Part shown: in pieces, positions 7,236 through 63,032 of the stretch
Layout of the letters: each line of letters begins with the position of its first letter
Numbering within the stretch: the first letter of the stretch is position 1
NCBI RefSeq assembly: GCF_000214375.1
Contig: NC_015578.1
Span: 3,162,001 to 3,226,000 of the forward strand
Source: Treponema primitia ZAS-2
Lineage (GTDB): Bacteria; Spirochaetota; Spirochaetia; Treponematales; Breznakiellaceae
Reading direction: 5' to 3'
DNA length: 64,000 nucleotides
The notes under the pieces: generated by a model
Database searches by the model: none
Told to the model about the DNA's origin: nothing
The model's input: only the letters and a program-made list of their open reading frames with translations
Program-made: the position numbers and the translations under genes

Positions 7236-8240
7236 TTAAACTGAAAATTCCTCGTAGTGCCCGGTTTGGCTAATATCATAGCCCCCCATGAGCTCCAGGT
7301 CCTTTTTGAATTCATCGGAAGCGATATAGGCGCTCACTATCCTGATTGCGGGGTTATGCCGATCCTCCAGGCGGAAGACAAAATCGTACCATTCCATCTG
7401 AAGGGGGATAAATTCGACCCCCGCTACCCTATCAATACCCCGTTCACAGCCGTAGCCTACTTCGGCGCCGCCCTTAGCCACGGTACTGGCGCAGGCCAGG
7501 TGGGAACTTGATTCCCGGGTATAACCCTGGATTTTGGCGGCGTTTATCCCCAGAAGGGCCAGTTTCTGGTCCAGCAGGATCCGGGCGCCGGATCCCCGTT
7601 CCCGGTTAACCATGGTCAAGCCCGGGCGGCTGAAATCCTTCCAGTCCCGGATGTTCTGGGGGTTCCCCTTCCGGACATAGAGGCCCTCCATACGGCCCAA
7701 CAAGCGAAAAACCCCCACCGGGAGCCCCGGAAGGAGGCGGCGGATAAAGGGGTAGTTGTAGGTATCGGTCTCCCCGTCCCAGAGGTGGGAGGCGGACATG
7801 GTTACCCGGCCGTGGTAGAGACTGTAGAGGCCATTGTAACAGCCCACAAAGGAGCGGAGTATCGGGATCCCCTCCCCGGCAAGCCGGGCTACCAGGAGGT
7901 CCAGGCATATATCCTGGCCGGAGATGATCACCGAGGCGGCGGAAGGCCTGCTCTCCCCTGACTCCCCTTCCCCGCCGGGAGCTTGCCGGCTAAGGCCGGC
8001 GCCGGGACCTGGCTGCTCGGCAAATTCACGGCGCCCCGGGTCCGGGGATCGCAGTTCCGAGTACTGGGGGCCGGTCTTGGAAAGCTCCAGGTAGCGGTCA
8101 ATATCGGTCTGGGAAATCCGGACTTGCTTCCCTACTTTGGATGAGGGGAGCTCGCCCCGTTTGATCAGTTCATATACGGTGTATTTTTTTATCCGCAGCT
8201 GTTTTGCAACATCCTCAGCGGTGAGAAGGGTTGATTCCAT
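7236..8240 (-). CDS. Excisionase-type HTH regulator fused to a periplasmic-binding-like ligand domain
   Basis: 334 residues. Residues 1-55 are a MerR/excisionase-type winged helix (LLTAEDVAKQLRIKKYTVYELIKRG and VRISQTDIDRYLE, in part). A Pro/Gly-rich linker of about 50 residues leads to a domain related to molybdate-type solute-binding proteins (the PBP_like family), with GSGARILLDQ and a GGAEVGYGCERGI motif near the C-terminus. Such proteins are intracellular transcription factors that sense a small ligand, often thought to be oxyanions; the ligand is not known here. Last gene of the five-gene operon, 21 bp after the solute-binding-like gene, so likely its regulator. No signal peptide. Confidence 0.8.
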   Translation of the reverse strand: MESTLLTAEDVAKQLRIKKYTVYELIKRGELPSSKVGKQVRISQTDIDRYLELSKTGPQYSELRSPDPGRREFAEQPGPGAGLSRQAPGGEGESGESRPSAASVIISGQDICLDLLVARLAGEGIPILRSFVGCYNGLYSLYHGRVTMSASHLWDGETDTYNYPFIRRLLPGLPVGVFRLLGRMEGLYVRKGNPQNIRDWKDFSRPGLTMVNRERGSGARILLDQKLALLGINAAKIQGYTRESSSHLACASTVAKGGAEVGYGCERGIDRVAGVEFIPLQMEWYDFVFRLEDRHNPAIRIVSAYIASDEFKKDLELMGGYDISQTGHYEEFSV

Positions 8241-8261
8241 ACTTTCATTGTATAGTACAAA

Positions 8262-9314
8262 TCAAGAAACGGCAATTGATAAAAAACTGGCAGGGACCGG
8301 GTCTTCGGGGTGGAACCTTTGGCGCTCATCGTAATAGACGGCTTCGATTTCCTCTATCCTCGGGAGGAGGCCTTTTTCGTAGATATAGTCCCAGCCTATC
8401 CAGCGGATTAAGGCGCCTTCGGGCAGGGGATGGCGGACTGCGCTGTTTACGTGGGCAAACCAGCCGTCGGCCATGACCTGGCCCAGTTCGGGGCTGAAAA
8501 CCCAGTCTGCGGCGGCTCGCTGGGGTTCGGTCAGGTCTTTCTTTATTAGGGCATACATGGGGTTGAGCACCGCCCCGTCTTCGGGCCAGATAATTTCCAA
8601 AAAATCACGCTTGGGAATTGCGTGGGCCCAGAACCAGGACAGGAAGTAAACACAGCAGCCATCCCGGTTTCCCTGGGTGTCGGCGGCCATTTCCTGGGCC
8701 CTGCCGGTAAAGCCGATATTGCGGGCCAGGGAGCGTATGCCCCTTTCGCCCTGCTCTTTCCACGTTTCCAGCAGCAGGAGTTCCGAAATATCATCTAAGG
8801 CAAAGCCGGTGCCCAAACTCCCTTCATATATAGGATTGGTGAGGTCCGAGATACACCGGGGCGCGGGCCGGCCATTAAGGCGGCGGTGGTTCACCAGGAT
8901 CACATAGGGCATGGCGCCGAAGATGCTAAAATTGCCCCGGGGGTCTTGAAGGTCCAGGTTCCGGAACAGGGGATGAACCGGTTGAGGCAGGGGCCATTGG
9001 GCGAAATGATCCTGCTTTTCCGGGGTCGAGAGGAAATTCCCGGTGAAGTATTCCCCATACCCGGATTCGGAAACCACTGCGGGGAATTTTGCCAGGTCCT
9101 GAATCGTGCTTATATTATAGTAGATATCTACTCCGCAACCCCCCATGGGAACCACGCCTTTGATTTTCCGGTCATGGGAAAGGTTATACCGGGCTTCGAA
9201 ATCCTTCCAGGCCGTAGAAAACCGATCCTTTATGGGGCAGTGCACATGGCCCAGATAATCCAGGTCTTCCCGCATGGAATCGGGAACCAGTTCGATGATC
9301 GACTCTTTTTTCAT
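8262..9314 (-). CDS. Solute-binding-protein-like, no signal peptide
   Basis: 350-residue protein with the fold signature of family-1 extracellular solute-binding proteins of the iron(III)/thiamine/putrescine type (YVILVNHRRLNG, DLTNPIYEGSLG, GFALDDISELLLL in order). The N-terminus (MKKESIIELVPDSMREDL) is charged and has no hydrophobic leader or lipobox, so the protein should stay in the cytoplasm. It contains several cysteines (GGCGVDIYYN, HCPIKD, DGCCVYF) that could bind metal. ATG 9314 overlaps the ABC ATPase stop by 4 bases. An export-less binding protein next to an ABC ATPase with no permease is odd; a carrier or chaperone role for a metal or cofactor is an inference. Confidence 0.7.
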   Translation of the reverse strand: MKKESIIELVPDSMREDLDYLGHVHCPIKDRFSTAWKDFEARYNLSHDRKIKGVVPMGGCGVDIYYNISTIQDLAKFPAVVSESGYGEYFTGNFLSTPEKQDHFAQWPLPQPVHPLFRNLDLQDPRGNFSIFGAMPYVILVNHRRLNGRPAPRCISDLTNPIYEGSLGTGFALDDISELLLLETWKEQGERGIRSLARNIGFTGRAQEMAADTQGNRDGCCVYFLSWFWAHAIPKRDFLEIIWPEDGAVLNPMYALIKKDLTEPQRAAADWVFSPELGQVMADGWFAHVNSAVRHPLPEGALIRWIGWDYIYEKGLLPRIEEIEAVYYDERQRFHPEDPVPASFLSIAVS

Positions 9315-10183
9315 GACAAACTCCTTTCTTTCACGGAAATCCCTTCTAAAAAAAATGTTTCCATATCAAAATCCAGGACGGCCCCTTCCCGGAGCAAGTC
9401 CCTGAGGGCTAGAAATTTCCCGCTCAGCTCCCCCATGAGGACCGCATTGCGCCGTTCCGCCGGGCTGGTCTCGATGATACGCCGCACCCCGCCCCGGTGT
9501 ATACAGATCCGCCGCTGCCCCAGCAGGGCCAGCACCGGGTCGTGGGTGGAAACCAGGACTATCTTATCCTCACCCACCAAAAGTTCCAGTGCCCCACGGC
9601 GGTCCACCCCGGCATTTTCCAGCTCGTCGATGAGCACCACCGGGGAGGGGCTGAGCAGGGCCGTATCGGCGATCATCAAAGACCGGGACTGGCCCCCGGA
9701 AAGCTGGGTTACCGCCGTACCCGCCGACAGGGCCTCCCCGGTGAGCCGGTTGGCGGCGGTCACAATCCGCTCCACCAGGCGGGGGCCGGAAAAATCTTCA
9801 CCCAGGGAGGCCAAATTGCGGCTTTCCGCGTGCATGAGGATAAATTCCTCCACCGTCAGGTCCATGATAAAGTTCATGTTTTGGGAAAGCTGGGCCACCA
9901 GCCTCCCATCCAAGGAATACCGCTGTTCCTGGCTGGGCTCCCGGCCGTCCAGGAGCAGACGCCGCCCTGTGGGGGTGTCCCCCTGGGCAAGGCAGCCTAT
10001 GTCCTCCAGGAAGCGACTTTTTCCCGCTCCGGTGGGTCCCACCACGCAGAGTATGCCCCCGGCCTCCAGGGTCAGGGTAAAGTCCTCGGGCAAGCCGTCC
10101 TTATCATGGCCGCCTATTATGGTGATGCTGTGGACTCCGCCCTTGGCTTCGCCGTCAGGAACGGCGTAATTTGTGTTAGACAT
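9311..10183 (-). CDS. ABC-type ATPase lacking a partner permease
   Basis: 290 residues from ATG 10183, chosen because GGAG lies 8 bases upstream. Complete ABC nucleotide-binding domain: Walker A GPTGAGKSRF, Q-loop near QLSQNMNF, signature LSGGQSRSLMIAD, Walker B VVLIDELENAG and H-loop STHDP. An N-terminal extension of about 25 residues and a C-terminal tail of about 40 are not typical for importers. No membrane gene lies in the operon, and the chain overlaps both neighbours. It may belong to a soluble ABC class (as in metal-cofactor assembly) or serve a permease elsewhere; not decidable here. Confidence 0.78.
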   Translation of the reverse strand: MSNTNYAVPDGEAKGGVHSITIIGGHDKDGLPEDFTLTLEAGGILCVVGPTGAGKSRFLEDIGCLAQGDTPTGRRLLLDGREPSQEQRYSLDGRLVAQLSQNMNFIMDLTVEEFILMHAESRNLASLGEDFSGPRLVERIVTAANRLTGEALSAGTAVTQLSGGQSRSLMIADTALLSPSPVVLIDELENAGVDRRGALELLVGEDKIVLVSTHDPVLALLGQRRICIHRGGVRRIIETSPAERRNAVLMGELSGKFLALRDLLREGAVLDFDMETFFLEGISVKERSLS

Positions 10184-10889
10184 GGGCTTCTCCGACCGGG
10201 GGTATCTCGATTTTTCGGGCAATCATACTGTTGGTGGCATAGTCCGGGCCTATGCGGGTTTCCCCCAGGCAATAGGAACAGAGGGCCGAAGGCAAAGGGA
10301 ACCGGATCTGCCCATGGTTCAGGGTGGCGACTTCCGGGGCGTCCCGGAGAAAGCGGGCCAATTCGGAGGCCCCCTCCCCGGTAAGGCCGTTCACAAAGAG
10401 GAATCGGGCGTTCCGGTTTGCCTCCCGGGCCCGGAAGGCAAAAACCTCCCGTTCAGCCTGGGAAACTACATCCGCCTTGGTGATCACCACCATGTCGGCG
10501 AAGAGGAGCATGGGGCCGATTTTTTTTGGGGTGTTAACCCCGGAAAGGCAGTCGATGACGCAGAGGGAACGGACCCCCTTGATATGGGGAGAACAGCGGT
10601 TGCAGAGCCCGGCGCTTTCACTGAAGAGATAGTCCAGGTTGCGGGAAAGGCCCCAGGCCACGCAATCTTCAATATTAGTGATAAAGTAATGGTCCGGGCA
10701 AAAATTCCCCGATATCCCCGTGAGCACCGGGATACCCCGCTTTTGGTAGAGTTCGTCATCCGTAGTGGAGATGCAGTCGAATTTGACCGCCCCCACGGTG
10801 AGCCCCTCTTTCATAAGGGCTTCCGCAGTCTTGATAGCCGCCGAAGTTTTGCCCGCCGAGGGGGGCCCGGCAAAGGTTACAAGCCTCAT
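10176..10889 (-). CDS. HypB/UreG-like SIMIBI GTPase with two CxxC motifs
   Basis: 237-residue P-loop GTPase of the group used for nickel and other metal delivery (HypB, UreG, CobW relatives). P-loop AGPPSAGKTSAA at residues 7-18; switch region LFSESAGLCNRCSP, similar in position to the HypB glutamate-Gly segment; base-recognition VITKADVV. Cysteine pairs CNRC and CSYC (near the C-terminus) are candidate metal ligands. The family folds or inserts metal centres using GTP. ATG overlaps the methyltransferase stop and the stop overlaps the ABC ATPase start, giving tight coupling. The metal and client are unknown. Confidence 0.8.
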   Translation of the reverse strand: MRLVTFAGPPSAGKTSAAIKTAEALMKEGLTVGAVKFDCISTTDDELYQKRGIPVLTGISGNFCPDHYFITNIEDCVAWGLSRNLDYLFSESAGLCNRCSPHIKGVRSLCVIDCLSGVNTPKKIGPMLLFADMVVITKADVVSQAEREVFAFRAREANRNARFLFVNGLTGEGASELARFLRDAPEVATLNHGQIRFPLPSALCSYCLGETRIGPDYATNSMIARKIEIPPVGEAHV

Positions 10890-11587
10890 AAGGGCACTCC
10901 GCTTACTGCGGCTTTGCGAAGAAGGAGCCAGTCCCCGGTATCATCATGGACCACCCGGACTTCGGCGAAGCCCAGGGACTGGGCCACCGGGGCATAATCC
11001 TCGGGCAGGGAATCCTGGGTGGTTTTCTGCTGACGCGCCCCAAAGTCGTCGCCGTTTCGTTCCGACATGACCCGGTAAATCTCGGTCTTCAAAGCCGGGC
11101 TGCCATAGCCCCCGCCCAAAACTGCCACCCCGCCGGGCGCCAGAATACGCCTGATTTCGGTCAGGCTTTGTTCCTTGTCCCAAAACCACATGGCCCCCCG
11201 GCTGACAACCAGGCCCGCCGAAGCCTCCGCAATGGGCATGGCGTGAACATCCGCGCAGAGGGTCGCTATACGCTCCCGGTCCGCTTCTTTGATGCGCCGG
11301 GCAGCCAGTTCCAGGGCATAGGGGTTTGAGTCCAAAAGGGTGATTTCATTCGTAACCAGTTCCGCAAGGGCCAGGCCCAGATGCCCCCCGCCGCAGCCCA
11401 GGTCCACACAGCGCCCCCGGCTTATCCCAGCAAGTTCCAGGAGCCGCCTTGCGATGGGCAGATATATGGGGGCGAACACCTCATCGGCGATGCGGTCGAA
11501 TTCCAAGGCTTTAGCCCGGGCTTTTTCAGCGGGAAGCGCGACGGTAGGGGAAATAGTGTTTAGCTTCGCCTCTGCTTCCGCAGCCAT
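10886..11587 (-). CDS. Class I SAM-dependent methyltransferase
   Basis: 233 residues from ATG 11587, chosen for AGGAGG seven bases upstream; a longer in-frame reading to 11719 has no such site and begins with improbable residues. The SAM-binding motif I is CVDLGCGGGHLGLAL (about residues 53-67), followed by ITLLDSNPYALE (acidic residue at the end of strand 2) and VVSRGAMWFWDKEQSL. This is a type-11 methyltransferase; substrate unknown. First gene of the operon; its stop overlaps the GTPase start (ATGA). The substrate might be a cofactor or corrinoid-like intermediate, but this is guesswork. Confidence 0.8.
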   Translation of the reverse strand: MAAEAEAKLNTISPTVALPAEKARAKALEFDRIADEVFAPIYLPIARRLLELAGISRGRCVDLGCGGGHLGLALAELVTNEITLLDSNPYALELAARRIKEADRERIATLCADVHAMPIAEASAGLVVSRGAMWFWDKEQSLTEIRRILAPGGVAVLGGGYGSPALKTEIYRVMSERNGDDFGARQQKTTQDSLPEDYAPVAQSLGFAEVRVVHDDTGDWLLLRKAAVSGVPL

Positions 11588-11612: not shown

Positions 11613-11641
11613 ATTATACCGGGGGAAACCTTAGCTATCAA
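11613..11641 (-). promoter_or_regulatory. sigma70-type promoter for the methyltransferase-GTPase-ABC operon
   Basis: Minus strand TTGATA (11641-11636), 17-base spacer, TATAAT (11618-11613). The predicted start near 11606 leaves a leader of about 20 bases that holds AGGAGG before ATG 11587. Confidence 0.6.
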
Positions 11642-11726
11642 GATGCTATTCTGCTCAAACATGATCTTATAAAACATAAAACACAATAAAACCACACGGA
11701 TTTGTCTATATTTAGCCAAATTTAAC

Positions 11727-11755: not shown

Positions 11756-11863
11756 CGGTTTTGTTTAAACTTCTAGTCTTATACACCAAATGAAACAAAC
11801 TAAAATAGAAACAAATACGTCAACTCCCTTGAGTTGCGTTTTGGAATAAAGAAGGAGCTATTT

Positions 11864-13609
11864 ATGAGAAAATGTCCAGCACGGGGTAGTATTACCCGGC
11901 TTCTGGCGGCGAGCCTAATCGCCGCTGCGCTGCTCGCAACGGGCTGCGAAAACGCTACTGAAGACCCCACACCCGGGCCGCTGAGTGTCGATACATCAGG
12001 GTTGATCAGCGGTATCACTCAGGCGAAAGAATTGCGGGATGCTACTGAAGTTTCAACAAATGGTGCGGATGTGCATACCAGCCAAAAATGGGTAACCCAG
12101 GCGGTCAAAACTGCCTTTACCACCGCGATTACCGCAGCTCAAACGGCAGCGGACAAAAGCGACGCCACCCAGGCGGAGATCGATGCGGCCCTGGCAGCCT
12201 TGAATACCGCCAAAACTACCTTTACCGACGCCCTCAGAGACGGAACCAGCGTAGCCAATAAAACCGCCCTTAATAGGGCCATCACTGAGGCCCAGGAATT
12301 ACTCGACAATACCGCAGTCTCGGCGGACGGCGCGGATCTGCTTACCAGTGAAAAATGGGTAAGCCAGGCGGCCCAAACTGCCCTTACCAACGCTATTGCC
12401 ACTGCTCAAACCACGGCGGGTACGCAAGACGCCACACAGGCTGCGGTCGATGAGGCGCGGACAGCCCTGAATACTGCCATAAGCGTCTTTATCAACGCCA
12501 TAGAAAACGGAACCGGCGCCAAGGCGGCGTTGCTCAGCGCTATCACAGCGGCGGAGAAAACACCGGAAAACATCCTAGTTTCGATAGACGGGGCAGATGT
12601 GCTGGTCAGTGAAAAATGGGTAACCCAGGCAGCCCTGACTACCTTTACCACTGCGATTAGCGCGGCGCAAACAGTGGCGGACAAAAGCGGCGCCCTGCAA
12701 GCGGAGTTTGATGCCGCCCTGGCAGCCCTGAATACCGCAAAGACCACCTTTACCACCGCCGCCCAGGCCGGAACCGGCGCCAAGGCGGCACTGCTCAGCG
12801 CTATCGCAGAGGCGGAAGGTTTACAGGCGAGCACCAAAGTTTCCACAGATGGAATGGATGTTCTTACCAGTCAAAAATGGGCACTCCAGGCAGCCAAAAC
12901 TGCCTTTGACAGCGCGATTACTACCGCCAAAACAGCGGCTGAAACGAGCGGCGCACTGCAAAAGGCGTTCGATGATGCGCTGACGGCCTTAAATACCGCA
13001 AAGACCACCTTTACCAGCGCCTCCAGCGCAGGATCATTGGCCGATAAAGCGGCGCTTCGCAGGGCTATCACTGAGGCCCAGGGCTTACTGACCAATACCG
13101 AGGTTTCGACTGACGGCACTGAGGTTTCTATATATAAAAAATGGGTAAATTCTCAGACGTACAAGGATGATTTAAGCGACGCTATTGTCCTGGCACAAGC
13201 GGTGGTGGACGTGACCGATATCACACAGCCCCAGACCGATGTTGATAATGCAAAAATAGCCCTTACTACGGCAATAAACGTCTTTAAAGGCGCTAGCAAG
13301 TATGGGTTTAACAGCACCACCGGATCGGTCAAGGATATCACCATTACCCTTTACCATGGGGCAGAGGCGCTTTCAGAATCACCAACGGTGAACATTGTAA
13401 CGAGGCTCAGTCACTACACAGTTTCGATTGGCTCGGGATGGACGGACATAGCCTGGTATCTTAACAACAGTACCAAATTGGCCTCTACGGATCTGGTACT
13501 TGGGCTACCCACCAGCGGCGGGAACAATTCGTACCTCACCCTGACCGTCGAAGCGAAAAAAGATGGGCTCCTCTGCACAGGAAACTGGATTTTCAAGCTT
13601 CAAAACTAA
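11864..13609 (+). CDS. Lipoprotein with five FIVAR-like repeats
   Basis: 581 residues from ATG 11864 (AAGGAG 7 bases upstream). A signal peptide ends in the lipobox LLATGC, so it is probably lipid-anchored. Five tandem repeats of about 85 residues follow (for example AITEAQELLDNTAVS, then a Trp-centred SEKWVSQA, then ATQAAVDEARTALNTAI); this pattern matches FIVAR-type helical repeats seen in surface proteins of other bacteria. The final 100 residues differ: beta-rich, with FNSTTGSVKDITITLYHG. Composition is Ala/Thr-rich. Likely a surface or periplasmic stalk; the binding partner is not known. First gene of a same-direction run reaching 22259. Confidence 0.85.
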   Translation: MRKCPARGSITRLLAASLIAAALLATGCENATEDPTPGPLSVDTSGLISGITQAKELRDATEVSTNGADVHTSQKWVTQAVKTAFTTAITAAQTAADKSDATQAEIDAALAALNTAKTTFTDALRDGTSVANKTALNRAITEAQELLDNTAVSADGADLLTSEKWVSQAAQTALTNAIATAQTTAGTQDATQAAVDEARTALNTAISVFINAIENGTGAKAALLSAITAAEKTPENILVSIDGADVLVSEKWVTQAALTTFTTAISAAQTVADKSGALQAEFDAALAALNTAKTTFTTAAQAGTGAKAALLSAIAEAEGLQASTKVSTDGMDVLTSQKWALQAAKTAFDSAITTAKTAAETSGALQKAFDDALTALNTAKTTFTSASSAGSLADKAALRRAITEAQGLLTNTEVSTDGTEVSIYKKWVNSQTYKDDLSDAIVLAQAVVDVTDITQPQTDVDNAKIALTTAINVFKGASKYGFNSTTGSVKDITITLYHGAEALSESPTVNIVTRLSHYTVSIGSGWTDIAWYLNNSTKLASTDLVLGLPTSGGNNSYLTLTVEAKKDGLLCTGNWIFKLQN

Positions 13610-13634
13610 TGAACAGGAATACTAAGGAGTATAT

Positions 13635-15710
13635 ATGATGAAAAAGGCAATTATTGTGATGGCGGCCATGGCCATGATCCTGGCCGTAGGGTGCGAAAAT
13701 GTTTTGGACCAAGGTAATAGGCCTTCAGGGTCCCATGAAATTACCGTGGAAATCGGCGGCTCCACCGCACGGTCGATCATGCCGGCATCAGACGACTTTA
13801 CCTATGTGGAATTCAGTTTTAGTGCCGTGCCCCCCACACCGTCCGAGGATATCCCCCCGGTACAGACCGAAACCGGCAGCGCCACCTTCTACCTGCCCGC
13901 AGGAACATGGCAGCTTACGGCTAAGGCCTATCGGAAAGGGCTGAGCAGCCCGGTGGCCCAAGCGACCAATGACATAAGCATTAATAGTTATGGGGCTGTA
14001 ACAGCGGGCAGTACCACTGTTTTCCTTTTACCTGTAGGAACCGGCAGGGGTGAATTTAAATACACGGTGACCAAAACCGCTGCTGCCCTTTCCACCAGTG
14101 CCAGCGCCGCCAGCAGCATCACCATCACCCGGCTTGACAGCGGGGAGACGGGTATCGAAGATGAGGCTTTTGTTGATGGGGTGCGAAAATTAGTCACCGC
14201 CGACTTTACCGATAATGTTCTTACCGGCAGCCTTTCCCTTGATGCGGGACGGTACACTGTGGATATACGGCTGCTTACCAATGCCAGCAGCATAGCCCGG
14301 AGCCTGTATGCGGTGTCCATCATGGACGGGCTGGATTCAGAACTCAGCTACGATGCAACAATATCAGGCTATGTGAGTTCAACAGCCGGCGTGATACCCT
14401 TTACCCCGGACATTGTGTTAGGCAAAACGGCATCTGTTGGCTCCCATATAGCCTTGAGTATCCCTTTCAATCCCGGCACAGCGGCGCAGCTCCGGTTTCT
14501 TACTGTTCCGAATACCACCGCTTCGGTGTACTTTACCGCCGCAAAAAACGCGTTACAGACTATTACCATTGGGGGTACCGACAGCAGTTCGATAACCAAA
14601 GCGGTTACTATCGTGGATGGTTCAACCCCGTCCGATACCCTGGATGTGTTTACCGTAGACACTACCGCTATTCCCACTGGGGGGGGTGAAAAAACCTTTA
14701 CCCTTACGGTGAACGAAGACGGTTACCGTTCCATCGTGAGCACCGTTACTGTAAAGGTAATAGAGCCAAACTCACCGGGTATTTGGGCCCCCGTTTCACC
14801 CTATGTTATAGGTGGCGGCGGCAGCGATGTGGTGTGGGGCAATGGTAAGTTTGTTGCCTCCGACTATAATAACGGGTCCGCCGCATATTCGGCAGACGGA
14901 GTTGCCTGGACTACCATAACCCAAGATGCAACGACCTTTGGCGCCAATTATATTAAAGATTTAGCGTACCTGAATGGCTCCTTTTGGGCCGTAGGAAAGG
15001 GCGGAAAAATTGCCACATCAGTAGACGGCATTACCTGGACAGCGGTAACCCAAACTGTTGCGGCCACGACTGAATTTTACAGCATAGCCTGGGGAGGTGG
15101 AGTATACATCATTGCCGGAGTTAGCGGGACAATGATACGCTCCACTGATGGAGTGGACTGGCAAAAAGTAGAAACAAGTACATTTGGTTCGGCCACTATA
15201 AACGGCGTAGCTTATGGTAACGGTATATTCATTGCTGTAGGGGCAAACGGCACTTCCGCTTATTCCCCGGATGGAACAAGCTGGACCAGTACCAGTACTA
15301 CAACCAATACCGGCAGTTTCTTTAGCACCAATACCATTAAAAAGATTGCCTTTGGCGGAGGAAACTTTCTCGCGGTCTCGCGATATGGCGTGGCAAGTAC
15401 CGCCAACGGGACAGATTGGACCTGGCATGAACTATGGCACTTTGACAGTCCGACGGACCCGGCCTGTGAAAATACCAAAGTGTGGATTCAGGCTGTAGCC
15501 TATGGCAACGAGTATTGGTGTGTAGGCGGCCAGGGCGGACGTATAGCCTACACTTCCGATCTGGGTACCTGGAACAAGGTTAACGGCGGTTACCATAATG
15601 ATCCTTTTGCCAATGGTGATTATGTGAACGGTATAGCCTATAGCGACACCGGCACATGGCTTATTACCGGCGGCGATGGCAGCCCGAAAGCCATGATTTC
15701 CCGGCCGTAA
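13635..15710 (+). CDS. Lipoprotein with C-terminal propeller-like domain
   Basis: 691 residues; AAGGAG lies 5 bases before ATG 13635. Signal sequence with ILAVGCENV (lipobox AVGC). The N-terminal half (residues 25-370) is beta-rich, Thr/Ser-rich and contains Ig-like strands (KTFTLTVNEDGYRS). The C-terminal 320 residues hold repeated blades of the form YS.DG..WT (AYSADGVAWTTIT, IRSTDGVDWQKVE, AYSPDGTSWT), each preceded by a GNG.F.AVG strand; this resembles sialidase-type or BNR propellers with Asp-box-like turns. The same blade type closes the next lipoprotein. Function unknown; envelope location likely. Confidence 0.83.
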   Translation: MMKKAIIVMAAMAMILAVGCENVLDQGNRPSGSHEITVEIGGSTARSIMPASDDFTYVEFSFSAVPPTPSEDIPPVQTETGSATFYLPAGTWQLTAKAYRKGLSSPVAQATNDISINSYGAVTAGSTTVFLLPVGTGRGEFKYTVTKTAAALSTSASAASSITITRLDSGETGIEDEAFVDGVRKLVTADFTDNVLTGSLSLDAGRYTVDIRLLTNASSIARSLYAVSIMDGLDSELSYDATISGYVSSTAGVIPFTPDIVLGKTASVGSHIALSIPFNPGTAAQLRFLTVPNTTASVYFTAAKNALQTITIGGTDSSSITKAVTIVDGSTPSDTLDVFTVDTTAIPTGGGEKTFTLTVNEDGYRSIVSTVTVKVIEPNSPGIWAPVSPYVIGGGGSDVVWGNGKFVASDYNNGSAAYSADGVAWTTITQDATTFGANYIKDLAYLNGSFWAVGKGGKIATSVDGITWTAVTQTVAATTEFYSIAWGGGVYIIAGVSGTMIRSTDGVDWQKVETSTFGSATINGVAYGNGIFIAVGANGTSAYSPDGTSWTSTSTTTNTGSFFSTNTIKKIAFGGGNFLAVSRYGVASTANGTDWTWHELWHFDSPTDPACENTKVWIQAVAYGNEYWCVGGQGGRIAYTSDLGTWNKVNGGYHNDPFANGDYVNGIAYSDTGTWLITGGDGSPKAMISRP

Positions 15711-15724
15711 CAGATTTTCCGGTA

Positions 15725-15767
15725 AAAGGGATGCCCAGGAACTTACTTAATTCCCGGGTATCCCTTT
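15725..15767 (+). terminator. Terminator-like hairpin after the propeller lipoprotein
   Basis: 17-base arms 15725-15741 (AAAGGGATGCCCAGGAA) and 15751-15767 pair at about 15 positions around a 9-base loop; a T-containing tail (CCATTTTATC) follows, so termination may be weak. Confidence 0.55.
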
Positions 15768-15783
15768 CCATTTTATCCAAAAA

Positions 15784-15796
15784 GGTGCCTGGCACC
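15784..15796. repeat. GGTG-CACC palindrome, copy 1
   Basis: 13-base palindrome GGTGCCTGGCACC preceded by an A-run. Member of a small dispersed family in this window (other copies at 18278, 18322, 37380 and 41388). Confidence 0.7.
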
Positions 15797-15798
15797 AG

Positions 15799-15827
15799 AT
15801 CGCCTGAAAGGGCGATTTGCTTTTTTA
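15799..15827 (+). terminator. Second intergenic hairpin with T-run
   Basis: ATCGCC (15799-15804) and GGCGAT (15811-15816) form a stem, followed by TTGCTTTTTTAG. It precedes the next gene by only about 12 bases, so it may attenuate read-through into it. Confidence 0.5.
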
Positions 15828-15838
15828 GGGAGCAGCTT

Positions 15839-20198: not shown

Positions 20199-22259
20199 AT
20201 GGTAAGATACGGTGCGGTTCTTGGAGTGCTCTGCACCTTTTTTCTGACAACCACCCTGTTCGCAGCAGAGGCGGATGAAGTAGGGGTAGAAGCGGATGAA
20301 GCAATCAGGCTGCCCGAAGCAAGGGTAGAAGATGTGCGGGATACGCCGGAACATATTACCCAGGAAGAGATGGAACGGGACGGCGTTACAGATCTATGGG
20401 AGGCGGTGCGTTATGTCCCCGGCGTAATCCTCTCAGGCGGGGGCCGCCGTAATGATTCAAATTTTACTGTTCGGGGATACGGCGCCGATGCTGTCCCCAT
20501 TTATATTGACGGAATAATTATGGCAAACCCCTACAGGGGTGAGGGAGATGCCGCCCGTTTTTTAACCGGAGACTTGGAGAGTATAGATATACAAAAAGGG
20601 TATAGCGACGAATTGCTGGGGGCAAATACTCTGGGGGGCGCCATACTTATGCGTACTGCAAAGCCCCGGAATAGTTTTGAAGCATCTGTAAAAACAAGTT
20701 TAGATTTTGACAGTATTGGAAAATACGCCGATTCCACCCATGTCCTGAGTTTGGGCAGCAGGTTGAAATATTTTTACACAAAAGCTGTGGCTCAATACCG
20801 TGATATAAACCATTTTCGCCTGCCCGGGGACTTTGAACCCACAAAATATAACCCCCAGGAAAAAGGAGACCGGCTCTGGTCTGATTCAAAGGATACTAAA
20901 ATTACGCTTTTAGCAGGGTTTACTCCGTTTCCCGAACTTGATATATGGGCAAACTGGGTTTATCAAACGGCAGACAAGGGTTTTTCAACCCCGGAAACAC
21001 GGACCAGGGAGTATCAAATATGGGACTGGCCGGTTTGGAATAGACAGAGCAGCTCCCTTAACGGGACCTATACGGCGGATGTTTGGAATATTGAAGCCCT
21101 GGCCTATTTTGATAAATACGATAACCGCTTAATAGAATACTATAACTGGAAAGCCTATACCCTTGGTATTCATCACGAACCTTCGGATTATGATGAGTAT
21201 ACCGCAGGGGGACACCTCAAGTTTGGGTGGGATATTAACAGTTGGAATACTGTCCGCTCTGGCGTTACCTATATTAAAGAGGATCATAAAAGCCTGTCTG
21301 ACGGAGAAGAACAGGTCCATGTGAATGAAGATACCTGGTCGTTTGGGGCTGAGTATTCAATGAACTATTGGGAACCCCTGACAGTAAATCTGGGAGGTGG
21401 TTTTAATTCCCTTGTGCCTATTGATTTTTATGGGGATGAAAATGAATTTATGAAAGCCCTGGGGGACCATTATTATGTCATTAAAACAAAACCAATGTTT
21501 CTGTATACCTGGCAGGCCGGTCTTTTTTACAAGCTTACTACATCCCATGAACTGCACCTTAGCTATGCGCGGAAAAATCATTTCCCCACCATGTCGGACA
21601 GGTATTCGACCCGCTTTGGCAGGAAACTCCCAAATCCGAACCTGGGCCCTGAAATCGCCAATCATTTTGAATTTGGATACCAGGGCGCCATACTCGAAAA
21701 ACTTACGATAAACACCGCAGTTTATTACAGCATCATGACAGGAAAAATTGTAAATATAAAACTGCCAAACCCTGAATATCCCCCTGTGGAGGTTGATTAT
21801 GCCAGAAACCTTGACTCCACATCATTTTACGGATTTGAATTTTCTCCGGAATTATTTATCAACAGCTTTATTAGCAGTGGCGCTTCATTTTCATATAATA
21901 AATATACGATAAACAACAGCCTACAGGGCGTCCTGAAACTTGATTATTATCCTGAAATCACGACCAATGCTTATGTGGTAATAAACCTGATTACCAAGGC
22001 GCCGGATAAAGCAAAATGGCTTACCCAGCTTTCCATTATTCCCCGCATTGAATTTATCGGATCCCGGTACGCGGACACCGCAGGAAAAAATGAGCTGGAC
22101 AGCTACTTCCTGGGGAACATCAAATTGGTACTTGGCATCACCAAGTATTGCACCATCTCCACAAGCGTAGAAAATATATTTGATGAATATTATGAAATCC
22201 GTGAAAACTGGCCCCTGGCGGGGCGATCGTTTAATATAAGCCTGACCGCCAAATACTGA
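20199..22259 (+). CDS. TonB-dependent outer-membrane receptor
   Basis: 686 residues. Signal peptide MVRYGAVLGVLCTFFLTTT ending near LFAAEA. Plug domain residues 45-150 (DLWEAVRYVPGV, FTVRGYGADAVPIYIDG, IDIQKGYSDELLGANTLGG), then a beta-barrel of alternating aromatic strands ending SFNISLTAKY with a terminal aromatic, as expected. Imports a metal complex or other bulky substrate across the outer membrane using TonB energy. The gene is followed by a DUF364 protein, tonB and a FecBCD-type importer, pointing to metal/siderophore uptake. The ribosome-binding site at ATG 20199 is weak. Spirochaetes seldom carry such receptors. Confidence 0.93.
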   Translation: MVRYGAVLGVLCTFFLTTTLFAAEADEVGVEADEAIRLPEARVEDVRDTPEHITQEEMERDGVTDLWEAVRYVPGVILSGGGRRNDSNFTVRGYGADAVPIYIDGIIMANPYRGEGDAARFLTGDLESIDIQKGYSDELLGANTLGGAILMRTAKPRNSFEASVKTSLDFDSIGKYADSTHVLSLGSRLKYFYTKAVAQYRDINHFRLPGDFEPTKYNPQEKGDRLWSDSKDTKITLLAGFTPFPELDIWANWVYQTADKGFSTPETRTREYQIWDWPVWNRQSSSLNGTYTADVWNIEALAYFDKYDNRLIEYYNWKAYTLGIHHEPSDYDEYTAGGHLKFGWDINSWNTVRSGVTYIKEDHKSLSDGEEQVHVNEDTWSFGAEYSMNYWEPLTVNLGGGFNSLVPIDFYGDENEFMKALGDHYYVIKTKPMFLYTWQAGLFYKLTTSHELHLSYARKNHFPTMSDRYSTRFGRKLPNPNLGPEIANHFEFGYQGAILEKLTINTAVYYSIMTGKIVNIKLPNPEYPPVEVDYARNLDSTSFYGFEFSPELFINSFISSGASFSYNKYTINNSLQGVLKLDYYPEITTNAYVVINLITKAPDKAKWLTQLSIIPRIEFIGSRYADTAGKNELDSYFLGNIKLVLGITKYCTISTSVENIFDEYYEIRENWPLAGRSFNISLTAKY

Positions 22260-22275
22260 GCACTCCGGATATAAC

Positions 22276-23040
22276 TCAGCCCCGGGCTATGCCCACCCGT
22301 TTCCCCGCGTCAAAGATGGTCCCCTCCCGTTTCCCGGTAATCACATCCCGGCACAGATCCGGATCGGTAAGCACCAGGCCCTGGAGGTCCCGCACTCCGA
22401 AGTCAAAGAGCAGGGGCGAAAGGGGCGTGGTAGGACCTGTCAGGATCATTCCCTGTCGGCGGGAAAGCTCCAGAAGCCGGGGCAGGGTCTTATTGACCAG
22501 GGTAACCCCGGTGGCAAAGACAAAATCCTGGAAAGGGATGATGAATTCACAGGCGGAATCCGGGTAATCCCCCGGGCCGGGGCGTTTTTCCAGGATAGAG
22601 AGCTCGCAAACCGGCCCCAGGATCCGTTCCAGGTGCATAAAATGGCCAACCACTGCCACTTTTTTGCCTGCAACCCGGCCTTTCCAGGCTTCAAAGGCGC
22701 TCATATCCTCCTCAGCAAGGGCAGATCTGACCTTCTTATGCTCCGGAGAGTTCCAGTAGGCGTTAATTGCCGCCACACCCAGGCTTGCTTCGGCAATATT
22801 CCAGGATTTAGCCGCCGTCGCCAGGTCCCGCAGGGCCATACCCCGGCAGGAATCCGGGAGGGTCCGGGGGCGGGTTTCGTTATTCGATAGATGGCCAAGG
22901 TTCATGGCCAGCCCAACCCGATCCCCGGAACGGACATAGCTCCAATGTTCCCCGGAAATTGCCTCATCGGCCTTATGTTCCGGGGGTATCGCGGCTATAA
23001 GACAATCATAGAGCGCCCAGGGATTCGTATTTTCTGCCAT
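22276..23040 (-). CDS. DUF364/DUF4213 putative heavy-metal-chelation-type protein
   Basis: 254 residues from ATG 23040; AGGAGG lies 7 bases upstream, so the upstream reading to 23067 is rejected. N-terminal about 80 residues resemble the DUF4213 enolase-like domain (GEHWSYVRSGDRVGLAMN), followed by a Rossmann-like DUF364 domain (VAVVGHFMHLERIL, FVFATGVTLVNKTLP, LTGPTTPLSPLLFDFG). The DUF364/DUF4213 family is linked to metal-uptake loci in other bacteria; it has been proposed, not proven, to chelate heavy metals or act on metal compounds. No signal peptide. Convergent with the receptor and divergent from tonB, sharing a palindromic operator-like site. Confidence 0.8.
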   Translation of the reverse strand: MAENTNPWALYDCLIAAIPPEHKADEAISGEHWSYVRSGDRVGLAMNLGHLSNNETRPRTLPDSCRGMALRDLATAAKSWNIAEASLGVAAINAYWNSPEHKKVRSALAEEDMSAFEAWKGRVAGKKVAVVGHFMHLERILGPVCELSILEKRPGPGDYPDSACEFIIPFQDFVFATGVTLVNKTLPRLLELSRRQGMILTGPTTPLSPLLFDFGVRDLQGLVLTDPDLCRDVITGKREGTIFDAGKRVGIARG

Positions 23041-23078
23041 CCTATTTCCTCCTGCTAAACCTGACAATTCAAAGAAGA

Positions 23079-23095
23079 TTAGTATAGTATACTAA
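23079..23095. promoter_or_regulatory. 17-bp operator-like palindrome upstream of DUF364 gene and tonB
   Basis: TTAGTATA-G-TATACTAA is a perfect odd-centred palindrome 39 bases upstream of the DUF364 start and 49 bases upstream of the tonB -35. It overlaps a TATACT on the minus strand. Shape and size suit a DtxR/TroR- or Fur-like metalloregulator, but the protein is not identified. Confidence 0.55.
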
Positions 23096-23143
23096 CCAAA
23101 CAAGTACATATCATATAAAACTAAATAAAACCTGTTTGTTTTC

Positions 23144-23172
23144 TTGACAAAATTATAAAACCAGACTATAAC
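23144..23172 (+). promoter_or_regulatory. sigma70-type promoter for tonB
   Basis: TTGACA (23144-23149), 17-base spacer, TATAAC (23167-23172). The predicted start near 23179 gives a leader of about 130 bases carrying a hairpin. Confidence 0.65.
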
Positions 23173-23202
23173 AAATTATGGAAAAAAAGTAATCGGCCTC
23201 GG

Positions 23203-23237
23203 TCCCGCCGGAATTCCTCTCCAATTTTCCGGTGGGA
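23203..23237 (+). promoter_or_regulatory. Hairpin in the tonB leader
   Basis: 11-base arms 23203-23213 (TCCCGCCGGAA) and 23227-23237 (TTCCGGTGGGA) pair with a single G-T exception, followed by CTATTATTTTACC. It could be an attenuator or a weak terminator; no known riboswitch is recognised. Confidence 0.45.
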
Positions 23238-23308
23238 CTATTATTTTACCGGAGCCCTTGGTTGAGGCTTCATTATGAACTATAAAGTGGTGTATAAAGC
23301 AATACTCC

Positions 23309-24022
23309 ATGAAAAAAAATCTGTGGCCCTTGATAATCTGTGTCTCTATGGTCATTCATGGGCTGATTTTTTTTATCCTTTCGGCTTTTCCCATGCCTGT
23401 TTCCCCGGCGTTGAAGCAGAAACCCTCCGGGGAAGCCTTCTCATTGGTCAATCTCGCCCTGGCAGAACCCCCGGAAGCGCCTCGGGACGATCCCCGGCCA
23501 AGGACGGCGCCGGAAATACCCATGGATCCTCAAACGGAAATCCCCCCGGCGCCTACCGAGGAGGCTGACGCTGAACTTTCTTCCCAATCCCTTGCGGAAA
23601 ATTTTATCACCCTGGAGGACAGCCCTGAGGATAAGCCTGGCTCTGCCGCCCCGGCTTCAGCCGGTTCCCCTGCGGGGATGTCCCCGGTTGAAGCCGGGGA
23701 TGGAAGCAGCGCGGGAAGCTCCTCTGGAAATTCCCCCCAAACCGCAGCCTATCTTAGCCGCAACTACAACTATATCCAGCGCCGCATCCGAGACAGCCTA
23801 GTGTACCCGGCCCAGGCGCGGCGCACCGGCATTCAGGGAACTGCGGAACTAATCTTCACCATTCACGAGGATGGCCGGGTAAGCGGGGTTAGGGTAAGCG
23901 AAAGCAGCGGGTCGGCGCTTCTGGACGCCGCAGCGGTGGAGGCCATCTATGCCGCAGCGCCATTCAGGCGACCTCCGGCGGAAGCCCGGCTGCTTATACC
24001 CGTGGCCTTCCGGCTGCATTGA
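23309..24022 (+). CDS. tonB: TonB energy transducer
   Basis: 237 residues. One N-terminal transmembrane helix (residues 7-28, ICVSMVIHGLIFFIL, with the family His), a Pro/Glu-rich periplasmic linker (residues 45-145), and a C-terminal TonB domain (YPAQARRTGIQGTAELIF, VRVSESSGSALLDAAAVEAI). It couples proton-motive force from the inner membrane to the outer-membrane receptor, normally with ExbB and ExbD, neither of which is seen nearby. ATG 23309 has no clear Shine-Dalgarno, whereas ATG 23275 in another frame has GAGG; see the finding. Lies upstream of the FecBCD-type importer. Confidence 0.9.
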   Translation: MKKNLWPLIICVSMVIHGLIFFILSAFPMPVSPALKQKPSGEAFSLVNLALAEPPEAPRDDPRPRTAPEIPMDPQTEIPPAPTEEADAELSSQSLAENFITLEDSPEDKPGSAAPASAGSPAGMSPVEAGDGSSAGSSSGNSPQTAAYLSRNYNYIQRRIRDSLVYPAQARRTGIQGTAELIFTIHEDGRVSGVRVSESSGSALLDAAAVEAIYAAAPFRRPPAEARLLIPVAFRLH

Positions 24023-24107
24023 GGTATTAGCAGACCCCGGCGCTTGCCGGCCCACGGGTTTTGACCAACTCAACCAAACGGCACATAACAAAACAGTGAT
24101 TTAAGCA

Positions 24108-24135
24108 TTGACAGTTAGGTTTTGGCCGGTATAAT
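24108..24135 (+). promoter_or_regulatory. Strong sigma70-type promoter giving a leaderless transcript
   Basis: TTGACA (24108-24113), 16-base spacer, TATAAT (24130-24135). The ATG at 24142 starts 6 bases after the -10, so transcription should begin at or beside the A of ATG, leaving no leader. Confidence 0.7.
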
Positions 24136-24141
24136 GGTTTT

Positions 24142-25281
24142 ATGAAGTACAATACCAATCAATATCGCCCTAATCGTTCTATTTTGTTTTACCGGGGCCT
24201 GCTTTGCAGTGTCCTATTCCTGGCGCTCAGTCTTCAATTAAATGCCGCGCCGCGGAAGGATGTTTCGGCGCCCCAGCCTTCGGAGACCGTGTCCGGGACA
24301 AGGTCCTTTACGGACTCCAGCGGGAGGACCCTGGAGATTCCGGGGAAGATCACAAAGATTTCTCCCTCGGGCAGCCTGGCTCAGATGTTCCTTTTGGCAA
24401 TCGCGCCGGATCTGATCTGCACCGTTTCCTCCGCCTATTCTCCTGACCAGGCGGAATTTGTCCCGGATTACCTGATGAACCTGCCCGTGGTGGGTCAGTT
24501 CTACGGCTCCCGGGACCTTAACCCCGAGGAAATCGCCCGGATAGGGCCGGATCTGGTTATCGATATCGGAGAGCCCAAGGACAGCATCGCCCAGGACATG
24601 GATGCCATCACCCAGTCTATCGCCATTCCGGCCATCCATATTACCGCTACCCTCAGGAGCACCCCGCAGGCGTTCCGCACCCTGGGCCAACTCCTGGACA
24701 GAGAGGAACAGGGGGAAAAACTCGCCCTTTTCTGCGAAAAAGCCCTTTCTCGAGTCGATGACATTGTGGCTAAGGCGGGAAATAATAAAAAAGAGTTGCT
24801 CTACTGCCTGGGACCTAGGGGTATCAACGTACTCGCCGCAGGGTCCTTTCATACGGAAGTCCTGGACTGGATAGCCAACAATAAGGCGGTGGTGGATAAT
24901 CCCTCTTCCCGGGGGAGTGGCAATGAAACCAACCTGGAACAGATACTGCTCTGGGATCCGGAGCTGATCATCTTCGGTCCGGACAGCGTGTATAGTTCCG
25001 TCGCGGCGGACCCTACCTGGAAGCAGCTCCGGGCTATACGCACCGGGGCCTACTACGAGGTTCCCCAGGGTCCCTATAACTGGATGGGTACCCCCCCGTC
25101 GATAAACCGTTACATAGGTATGCTCTGGCTGGGGAAAATCCTCTACCCCCAATACGCTCAATACGACCTATACACCGAAACCGCAGAATACTACCGGCTG
25201 TTTTACGGACGGGAACTCAGCCGGGAACGGTATGAGCGGCTGACCGCAAACAGTATTTCTGCGGGTGGTCCGGGTAAATAG
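24142..25281 (+). CDS. Periplasmic binding protein of a FecBCD-type metal/siderophore ABC importer
   Basis: 379 residues. Signal peptide of about 37 residues (RGLLCSVLFLALSLQLNA). The mature part is a class III (FecB/BtuF-type) solute-binding protein: RSFTDSSGRTLEIPG, GSLAQMFLLAIAPD, NPEEIARIGPDLVI, and the late GPYNWMGTPPSINRYIG segment. It captures a metal complex in the periplasm for the permease. Candidate ligands include ferric siderophore, corrinoid or molybdate; the sequence does not decide. Apparently leaderless (promoter at 24108). Next gene begins about at its stop. Confidence 0.88.
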   Translation: MKYNTNQYRPNRSILFYRGLLCSVLFLALSLQLNAAPRKDVSAPQPSETVSGTRSFTDSSGRTLEIPGKITKISPSGSLAQMFLLAIAPDLICTVSSAYSPDQAEFVPDYLMNLPVVGQFYGSRDLNPEEIARIGPDLVIDIGEPKDSIAQDMDAITQSIAIPAIHITATLRSTPQAFRTLGQLLDREEQGEKLALFCEKALSRVDDIVAKAGNNKKELLYCLGPRGINVLAAGSFHTEVLDWIANNKAVVDNPSSRGSGNETNLEQILLWDPELIIFGPDSVYSSVAADPTWKQLRAIRTGAYYEVPQGPYNWMGTPPSINRYIGMLWLGKILYPQYAQYDLYTETAEYYRLFYGRELSRERYERLTANSISAGGPGK

Positions 25282-25288
25282 GCCCTTT

Positions 25289-26323
25289 ATGGCGGATTCC
25301 TCCTCCGGTAAACTTGGTGCTTCCGGCGCCGGCCTGAGCCGGAGATTTCCTGCCGCCGCCATCCTGGGCTTGCTCCTGGTCGCGGCAGTGCTGGTGTCCC
25401 TGTCCCTGGGCCGCTACCCCATACCCCTGGGCGCCCTGATCACTCGGCTCCTGGGAGGCACCTTTGCCACACCCCAGATGGAAGCGATCTTCTTCAATGT
25501 GCGGCTTCCCCGGATCATCCTGGCCTGCCTGGTTGGGTGCTCCCTGGCGGCGGCGGGGGCCAGCTACCAGGGGGTGTTTCAGAATCCCTTGGCTGCCCCG
25601 GACATACTGGGGGCCTCAAGCGGGGCCGCCACCGGGGCAACCCTGGCGATACTGATGCGGCTCCCGGGCCCCATGATCACGATTTTTGCCTTTTTTGCCA
25701 GCATTATTACCATAGCCCTGGTAATGTTCATCGGGAACCAGACCCGGGGCAGAAACATTGTGGGGCTTATCCTTGCGGGCTTGATGATATCATCCCTGAA
25801 CAGCGCCGCCATATCCTTCATGAAGCTCATGGCGGACCCCAACAATGTGCTGCCCGAGATCGTCTACTGGCTCATGGGCTCCCTGGCTAAAACAAAGCCT
25901 GCGGATGTAGCTTTTGTGTTCATCCCCATGACTCTGGGGCTGGTCCCCCTGTTTATTTTCCGCTGGAGGATCAACCTCCTCACCCTGAGCGAAGATGAAG
26001 CCCAGTCCATGGGGGTCAATGTCAAACGCACCCGGGCATTAGTAATTGTGTGCTCCACCCTGATTACTGCTGCGGCAGTTTCCGTGAGTGGCATCATAGG
26101 CTGGGCCGGGCTGGTGATCCCCCACCTGACCCGGCGTTTCGTGGGCAACGATTACCAAAAGCTCATGCCCGCAACTATGCTCTTCGGGGCCCTCTTCCTC
26201 CTGGTGATCGACAATATCTCCCGCAACCTCTTTGCCACCGAGGTCCCCCTGGGGATACTCACATCCCTGGTAGGGGCGCCATTCTTCCTCTGGCTCATCA
26301 CCAGGAAGGGGGATTTATGGTAA
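25289..26323 (+). CDS. FecCD-type ABC permease
   Basis: 344 residues from ATG 25289 (a GTG at 25265, overlapping the binding-protein gene, is also possible; neither has a clear ribosome-binding site). About nine to ten transmembrane helices with hallmarks VRLPRIILACLVGCSLAAAG, GVFQNPLAAPDILGASSGA and SGIIGWAGLVIPHLTR. Forms the membrane channel through which the binding protein's metal cargo crosses the inner membrane. The stop overlaps the ATPase start by 7 bases, showing one operon. Sequence normal. Confidence 0.92.
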   Translation: MADSSSGKLGASGAGLSRRFPAAAILGLLLVAAVLVSLSLGRYPIPLGALITRLLGGTFATPQMEAIFFNVRLPRIILACLVGCSLAAAGASYQGVFQNPLAAPDILGASSGAATGATLAILMRLPGPMITIFAFFASIITIALVMFIGNQTRGRNIVGLILAGLMISSLNSAAISFMKLMADPNNVLPEIVYWLMGSLAKTKPADVAFVFIPMTLGLVPLFIFRWRINLLTLSEDEAQSMGVNVKRTRALVIVCSTLITAAAVSVSGIIGWAGLVIPHLTRRFVGNDYQKLMPATMLFGALFLLVIDNISRNLFATEVPLGILTSLVGAPFFLWLITRKGDLW

Positions 26324-57670: not shown

Positions 57671-57686
57671 GCCTACTCCTCTCAAT

Positions 57687-58565: not shown

Positions 58566-58574
58566 AATCCCTGC

Positions 58575-59249: not shown

Positions 59250-59278
59250 GGCCATCCTCCTTGTTCTCCCGGCACAGC

Positions 59279-59770: not shown

Positions 59771-59775
59771 AAAAT

Positions 59776-61977: not shown

Positions 61978-61986
61978 ACCGTTTTT

Positions 61987-62910: not shown

Positions 62911-62916
62911 GTGGGT

Positions 62917-62945
62917 ATTGTACCACCCGGGCATGCGGGGTACAA
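62917..62945 (-). promoter_or_regulatory. Promoter of the cas operon giving a leaderless cas6 message
   Basis: Minus strand TTGTAC (62945-62940), 17-base spacer, TACAAT (62922-62917). Six bases separate the -10 from ATG 62910, so transcription probably starts at the ATG. The -35 matches that of the toxin-antitoxin pair. Confidence 0.5.
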
Positions 62946-63032
62946 GCGGGCATTGCGGGAGGCCTCCGAAATGCCCCAAAGAAGAGAGCCATCTATTGGT
63001 GGCTAAAAAGAGAATTGCTAGGCATTACAGGG

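What the first reader, a model, noticed from the sequence alone, without database searches (positions are those of the whole stretch)
7236..11587. Permease-less five-gene operon: methyltransferase, HypB/UreG-like GTPase, ABC ATPase, unexported binding-like protein, ligand-sensing regulator
Four of the five genes overlap by 4-8 bases and share one TTGATA-17-TATAAT promoter; no membrane protein gene lies in or near the set. The binding-like protein has no signal peptide. Together with a metal-type GTPase and a methyltransferase, this suggests intracellular handling of a metal or cofactor rather than uptake. Seen: overlaps and motifs. Known: HypB/UreG-type GTPases deliver metals. Inferred: a cytoplasmic cofactor-assembly or delivery system. 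I do not recognise it as a described pathway.
Basis: partly seen in the sequence, partly recalled or inferred. Interest (0 to 1): 0.65.

Follow-up and report, generated by a model that had tools for sequence, protein, structure and literature searches.

The report
Cytosolic arm of molybdenum-linked metal uptake
Five bacterial genes that looked like a stand-alone metal-handling kit are better read as the inside-the-cell half of a molybdenum-regulated metal-import cluster found in nitrogen-fixing gut bacteria, built around a three-protein module of unknown mechanism that another group of bacteria appears to control together with its nitric-oxide defences.

Summary
The five genes, the overlaps and the promoter are as described. 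'Permease-less' does not hold for the cluster as a whole. The same window carries a TonB receptor, TonB, a FecB-type binding protein, a FecCD permease and a FecE ATPase at 20.2-27.2 kb, in a layout shared with Treponema azotonutricia. In most sampled Bacteroidota the methyltransferase, binding protein, GTPase and ABC ATPase sit in one run of genes with fecBCD. The core is a trio: unexported SBP_bac_6 protein, Cys-rich HypB/UreG-like GTPase, and ABC ATPase. It occurs in at least five phyla.

Two regulatory wirings emerged. In Bacteroidota the trio operon has ModE boxes (40 seen, 2.9 expected), modABC/modE neighbours, and occurs only in nifH+ genomes (22/22 against 60/373). In treponemes the operon's regulator family sits beside modABC or a Mo-hydroxylase, and their promoters share a GTTTYAT repeat. 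In Fusobacteria and desulfuromonads the trio has HcpR (nitrosative-stress) sites.

Best reading: a cytosolic module that receives or processes an imported metal complex, tied to molybdenum here. The cargo and the chemistry are inferred, not shown. No description of this module was found in the open-access papers searched.

The parts
10886..11587 (-). class I SAM methyltransferase, first gene of the operon
   Evidence: Pfam Methyltransf_25/11; homologue in the trio operon of most sampled Bacteroidota
10176..10889 (-). CobW/HypB/UreG-class GTPase with invariant C64, C96xxC99, C204xxC207
   Evidence: Pfam cobW; 74-sequence alignment; fold nearest HypB 2hf8 and UreG 4hi0/5xkt
9311..10183 (-). ABC ATPase with no permease in its own operon (ATG start; TTG start at 10222 also possible)
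   Evidence: ABC_tran; conserved LSGGQSR and LIDE(L/I)ENAG motifs
8262..9314 (-). unexported SBP_bac_6 binding-protein fold, invariant C26
   Evidence: Pfam 161 bits; no signal peptide in homologues; fold nearest FbpA/FutA1/AfuA
7236..8240 (-). HTH_17 + PBP_like regulator, proposed molybdenum-linked regulator
   Evidence: Pfam; paralogues beside modABC and a Mo-hydroxylase in treponemes
11613..11641 (-). TTGATA-17-TATAAT promoter
   Evidence: sequence
11676..11692 (-). GTTTYAT direct-repeat site, proposed regulator site
   Evidence: 1 mismatch; motif
11790..11806 (-). second GTTTYAT direct-repeat site
   Evidence: 2 mismatches
20199..22259 (+). TonB-dependent outer-membrane receptor
   Evidence: NCBIfam heme/siderophore receptor models, all below cut-off; same layout in T. 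azotonutricia
22276..23067 (-). DUF4213/DUF364 'heavy-metal chelation' protein; directly upstream of the methyltransferase in relatives
   Evidence: Pfam; synteny L039-L042
23115..23131 (-). perfect GTTTYAT direct-repeat site upstream of DUF364
   Evidence: 0 mismatches
23309..24022 (+). TonB
   Evidence: TonB_C
24142..25281 (+). FecB-type periplasmic binding protein with an apparent signal peptide
   Evidence: best solved relative 4pag, more distant HI_1472 3psa
25265..26323 (+). FecCD permease
   Evidence: FecCD 291 bits
26317..27162 (+). FecE-type ATPase
   Evidence: order TonBR-TonB-FecB-FecCD-FecE also in T. azotonutricia L052

Best explanation
The five genes are the cytosolic arm of a molybdenum-linked, TonB/FecBCD-type metal acquisition cluster in a treponeme that carries nitrogenase genes. 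The imported metal or metal chelate would be received by the cytosolic binding protein. The methyltransferase, with the partner DUF364 protein, would modify or release the chelator. The Cys-rich GTPase and the soluble ABC ATPase would drive metal hand-off to user enzymes such as nitrogenase. The HTH_17/PBP_like regulator would tune the set to molybdenum status, as ModE appears to in Bacteroidota. Shown here: gene content, synteny with the importer, regulatory sites and neighbours, nifH association, conserved cysteines. Inferred: that the cargo is molybdenum, each protein's chemistry, and the direction of metal flow.
For: Importer in the same window and syntenic in T. azotonutricia. Most sampled Bacteroidota loci carry FecCD, FecE, MT, FecB, SBP, GTPase and ABC in one run. 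ModE-like boxes 40 vs 2.85 expected, mostly just upstream of operon-first genes and at the E. coli ModE spacing (consensus in PMC545781). modABC/modE next door in many of these loci. All 22 trio+ Bacteroidota have nifH over cut-off vs 60 of 373 trio- (P 8e-17); several are physically close to nif/anf genes. Treponemal regulator paralogues sit divergently beside modABC next to nifB/nifN in T. azotonutricia, near modABC in G015, and beside a Mo-hydroxylase in G001. The shared GTTTYAT repeat gave an independent genome-wide hit just upstream of modD. DUF364 genome context was already linked to Mo/W/V/Fe transport (PMC2954201).
Against: The trio also occurs where molybdenum is an unlikely need: Leptotrichia and Fusobacteria with HcpR sites. 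Treponeme G015 has the operon but no nitrogenase-type gene. No ModE box was found at the window operon, and the GTTTYAT motif was partly trained on it. Bacteroidota trio+ genomes may be one lineage, so the nifH association is not phylogenetically independent. TonB receptor and FecB models fall below every family cut-off, and the SBP fold is nearest iron, sugar-phosphate and polyamine binders.
Confidence: 0.5

Rival explanations
1. The trio is a general intracellular iron (or Fe-S/Fe-chelate) handling or repair module. Molybdenum wiring in diazotrophs reflects their iron demand, and HcpR wiring reflects repair of NO-damaged iron centres.
For: SBP fold nearest ferric-binding FbpA/FutA1. HcpR-type sites in front of the trio in 11 of 12 desulfuromonads and perfect HcpR2 palindromes in 21 of 32 Fusobacteria-type and related loci; hcp adjacent in many. 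FecBCD/TonB partners are typical of iron-chelate uptake. AnfHDGK near the operon in G378, G468, G417 and G854.
Against: In Bacteroidota the operon carries ModE boxes and modABC/modE neighbours; the treponemal regulator family is Mo-linked. Fur-type sites were not tested.
Confidence: 0.3
2. One reading: a stand-alone cytoplasmic cofactor-assembly or delivery pathway unrelated to uptake.
For: The trio itself has no permease; in Fusobacteria and desulfuromonads it mostly stands without an importer; the HypA-like zinc-ribbon partner there resembles metallochaperone sets.
Against: Importer genes share the operon in most sampled Bacteroidota and the cluster in treponemes.
Confidence: 0.15
3. Tetrapyrrole or corrinoid-type ligand handling: the imported or modified molecule is a cyclic tetrapyrrole acted on by the methyltransferases.
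For: A SUMT-like TP_methylase heads several ModE-boxed Bacteroidota operons. Best FecCD model is BtuC, below cut-off. DUF364 resembles precorrin methyltransferases (PMC2954201).
Against: TP_methylase is absent from the treponemal cluster and scores below the SUMT cut-offs. No cobalamin riboswitch in the loci searched.
Confidence: 0.05

Closest known systems
FecBCD/TonB metallophore importers, including the H. influenzae MolBCA-type Mo/W branch (HI_1470-1472; function recalled, not looked up)
   Same: TonB receptor, FecB, FecCD, FecE set; the FecB-like protein has a distant match to HI_1472
   Different: Adds a cytosolic binding protein, GTPase, second ABC ATPase and methyltransferase, which as far as I recall have no counterpart there
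HypB / UreG metallochaperone GTPases
   Same: Fold and cobW domain
   Different: Below both family cut-offs (35 vs 121 and 27 vs 204 bits); own pattern of invariant cysteines; different operon partners
FbpA / FutA ferric-binding proteins (SBP_bac_6 relatives)
   Same: Predicted fold
   Different: No signal peptide in any homologue read; an invariant Cys at position 26
Soluble permease-less ABC ATPases such as SufC or PhnK/L (recalled)
   Same: ABC ATPase without permease in its own gene set
   Different: No SufBD or phosphonate genes seen in the operon; partners are a cytosolic SBP and a GTPase
ModE and HcpR regulons (PMC545781, PMC1274295)
   Same: Site consensus and spacing match
   Different: The passages read do not mention this trio; PMC1274295 gives only hcp for the F. 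nucleatum and T. denticola HcpR2 regulons

Membership tests
ABC importer | permease subunit encoded with the ATPase | tested here: not met
   none in the five-gene operon; the FecCD permease of the cluster has its own FecE
ABC importer | exported or lipid-anchored binding protein | tested here: not met
   no signal peptide or lipobox visible in the window SBP or about 70 homologues, N-termini read by eye
HypB | NCBIfam TIGR00073 cut-off | tested here: not met
   35.3 vs 121.2 bits
UreG | NCBIfam TIGR00101 cut-off | tested here: not met
   27.3 vs 204.2 bits
CobW/HypB/UreG superfamily GTPase | Pfam cobW domain and Walker A motif | tested here: met
   36.6 vs 20.7 bits; conserved GPPSxGKT
ModE regulon (Bacteroidota relatives) | CGnTATA-N10-TATAnCG boxes upstream | tested here: met
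   40 vs 2.85 expected, pattern allowing 7-11 spacer and one mismatch
ModE regulon (window operon) | ModE box upstream | tested here: not met
   only one hit in the window, inside a coding region
HcpR regulon (DUF1858-clade relatives) | HcpR1/HcpR2 palindromes upstream | tested here: met
   22 vs 1.3 and 26 vs 2.7 expected; 21 of 32 loci with perfect HcpR2 sites
Molybdenum acquisition system | binds or transports Mo | not testable with these tools
   regulatory and neighbourhood evidence only

The most novel reading that the evidence does not exclude
A previously undescribed intracellular metal-trafficking machine, made of a cytosolic periplasmic-binding-protein fold, a Cys-rich GTPase and a soluble ABC ATPase, which uses both GTP and ATP to move a metal complex between importer and enzymes. 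It has been wired into the nitrosative-stress regulon in one clade and the molybdenum regulon in the other.
Probability: 0.35. Interest if true: 0.8.

Novelty: new variant of a known kind. Interest (0 to 1): 0.6.

Why it matters
How anaerobes get scarce molybdenum into nitrogenase, and how metal is moved safely inside cells under NO stress, are open questions. This module is conserved at high identity across distant phyla and has no name in the family libraries searched. Its two regulatory wirings give direct predictions (Mo limitation, NO exposure) that can be tested in culturable organisms.

Tried and rejected
Hcp dependence: rejected as the general rule, since Leptotrichia genomes carry the trio without any Hcp found. 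Fe-only nitrogenase as the necessary partner: only 6 of 22 trio+ vs 4 of 50 tested nifH+ trio- Bacteroidota have AnfD (P 0.06), none in T. primitia or T. azotonutricia. Riboswitch control: no regulatory RNA near the operon in the window region or the eight loci searched; one FMN riboswitch in L091 lies elsewhere in that locus. ModE box at the window operon: absent. Sequence search of solved structures for the SBP: one insignificant hit. GTPase tree: treponemes group with Bacteroidota but with no support (0.02), so shared ancestry of the Mo-type clade is not established. Literature searches for molybdophore/TonB, DUF1858 with hybrid cluster, and T. primitia TonB found nothing on this module.

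Full report
What is there. Translation and Pfam confirm a minus-strand set: methyltransferase, cobW-type GTPase, ABC ATPase, SBP_bac_6 protein and an HTH_17+PBP_like regulator, with overlaps of 4, 8 and 4 bases, a 21-base gap before the regulator, and the TTGATA-17-TATAAT promoter. The genome is a single 4,059,867-bp contig, which from memory matches Treponema primitia ZAS-2; G034 (3,855,671 bp) likewise matches T. azotonutricia.

The set is not alone. At 20199-27162 the window holds a TonB receptor, a DUF4213/DUF364 protein, TonB, a FecB-type protein, a FecCD permease and a FecE-type ATPase. In four treponeme relatives (L039-L042) the DUF364 gene lies directly upstream of the methyltransferase, and in T. 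azotonutricia the TonB receptor-TonB-FecB-FecCD-FecE series runs divergently from it. In the window, large lipoprotein-like genes and the receptor now lie between the two halves.

A conserved trio. GTPase orthologues at 55-61% identity occur in Desulfuromonadales, Fusobacteria, Aminicenantes, Bacteroidota and other spirochaetes, next to the same SBP and ABC ATPase. The SBP is the variable member (mostly 15-28% identity outside the treponemes) but appears unexported everywhere, by inspection of N-termini. In one clade the SBP carries an N-terminal DUF1858 domain. The GTPase has five invariant cysteines, C64, C96xxC99 and C204xxC207; the SBP has an invariant Cys at position 26; the ATPase keeps LSGGQSR and LIDE(L/I)ENAG. 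AlphaFold models (SBP pLDDT 81, GTPase 67 with an unreliable C-terminal tail) are nearest FbpA/FutA1/AfuA-type binding proteins and HypB/UreG.

Context one: molybdenum. In most of the Bacteroidota loci examined, methyltransferase, FecB, SBP, GTPase and ABC ATPase form one run, usually with FecCD, FecE and a TonB receptor. A ModE-box pattern was found 40 times against 2.85 expected from local shuffles in 20 loci, mostly just before FecCD, TonB-receptor or modABC genes, and nearly all at the E. coli spacing given in PMC545781. ModE, ModABC, NifB, NifH or NifN genes are neighbours in many of them. In 395 sampled Bacteroidota, 82 have nifH over cut-off and all 22 trio-bearing genomes are among these, P = 8e-17 without correction for relatedness. 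In G468 the operon is divergent from anfH and has modE behind it. AnfD itself is not significantly associated (6/22 vs 4/50, P 0.06).

Treponemes have no ModE box at this operon, but paralogues of the operon's regulator lie divergently beside modABC next to nifB/nifN in T. azotonutricia, near modABC in G015, and beside a molybdenum hydroxylase in G001. A motif search over seven treponemal promoters gave a GTTTYAT direct repeat scoring above shuffles. In the window it matches only four places, three of them upstream of the methyltransferase and DUF364. Because the motif was trained on these promoters, that is partly circular. Genome-wide at one mismatch, three sites remain in each genome; in T. 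azotonutricia one is the modA promoter used in training and one lies just upstream of modD, which was not used.

Context two: nitrosative stress. In the DUF1858 clade, HcpR1-type sites precede the trio in 11 of 12 desulfuromonads (where hcp is often divergent, so the sites may serve hcp), and perfect HcpR2 palindromes lie upstream of the SBP in 21 of 32 Fusobacteria-type and related loci, only one of which has hcp nearby (consensus from PMC1274295). Leptotrichia carries the trio without any Hcp found. The trio is thus not an Hcp accessory by necessity.

Interpretation. The parts common to both contexts are a cytosolic binding protein, a metal-type GTPase and a soluble ABC ATPase. I infer a module that takes charge of a metal or metal complex inside the cell. 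Here it is coupled to import and to molybdenum status. Which metal it holds is not shown. Iron is the main rival, because of the binding-protein fold, the HcpR wiring and the absence of an obvious Mo need in Fusobacteria (recalled). Searches of an open-access paper collection found no description of this module; that collection omits most subscription journals.

Limits. ORF calls in the relatives are mechanical; many relatives are draft genomes; Bacteroidota relatedness could not be told from the handles; signal peptides were judged by eye; Fur sites and modABC in T. primitia itself were not searched.

Noticed in passing
L031, L033, L034, L090, L091, L093-L099, L101-L109 upstream of SBP: Perfect HcpR2 palindromes in front of the trio suggest the HcpR regulon of Fusobacteria is larger than hcp alone.
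   Followed up: partly
L041 1-6646: Beside the operon in T. azotonutricia lie two nitrogenase-component-1-like genes, a B12-binding protein and, by eye, two UroD-like proteins and a ferredoxin-domain activator.
   Followed up: partly
L063 1234-2031, L067 1439-2242: SUMT-like tetrapyrrole methylase, below SUMT cut-offs, behind a ModE box at the head of the Bacteroidota operon.
   Followed up: partly
L098 12653-17811: Fusobacterial fecBCD followed by a NifH/CfbC-like ATPase (below cut-offs) and a 487-aa protein with no NCBIfam match.
   Followed up: partly
L023 8132-8374 and relatives: 80-aa Cys-rich protein after the trio with a weak HypA match, frequent in the HcpR clade.
   Followed up: no
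L037 7030-7515: TrmO_N-domain protein inside a Bacteroides trio/FecCD operon.
   Followed up: no
window 11834-18271: Three large lipoprotein-like ORFs, some with repeated motifs, lie between the operon and the importer genes.
   Followed up: no
window 18348-20177: fn3 plus 5'-nucleotidase C-terminal domain protein, syntenic with the importer in L041/L040.
   Followed up: partly
window 55182-62979: ORFs that read like a type III CRISPR (Csm) set; by eye only.
   Followed up: no
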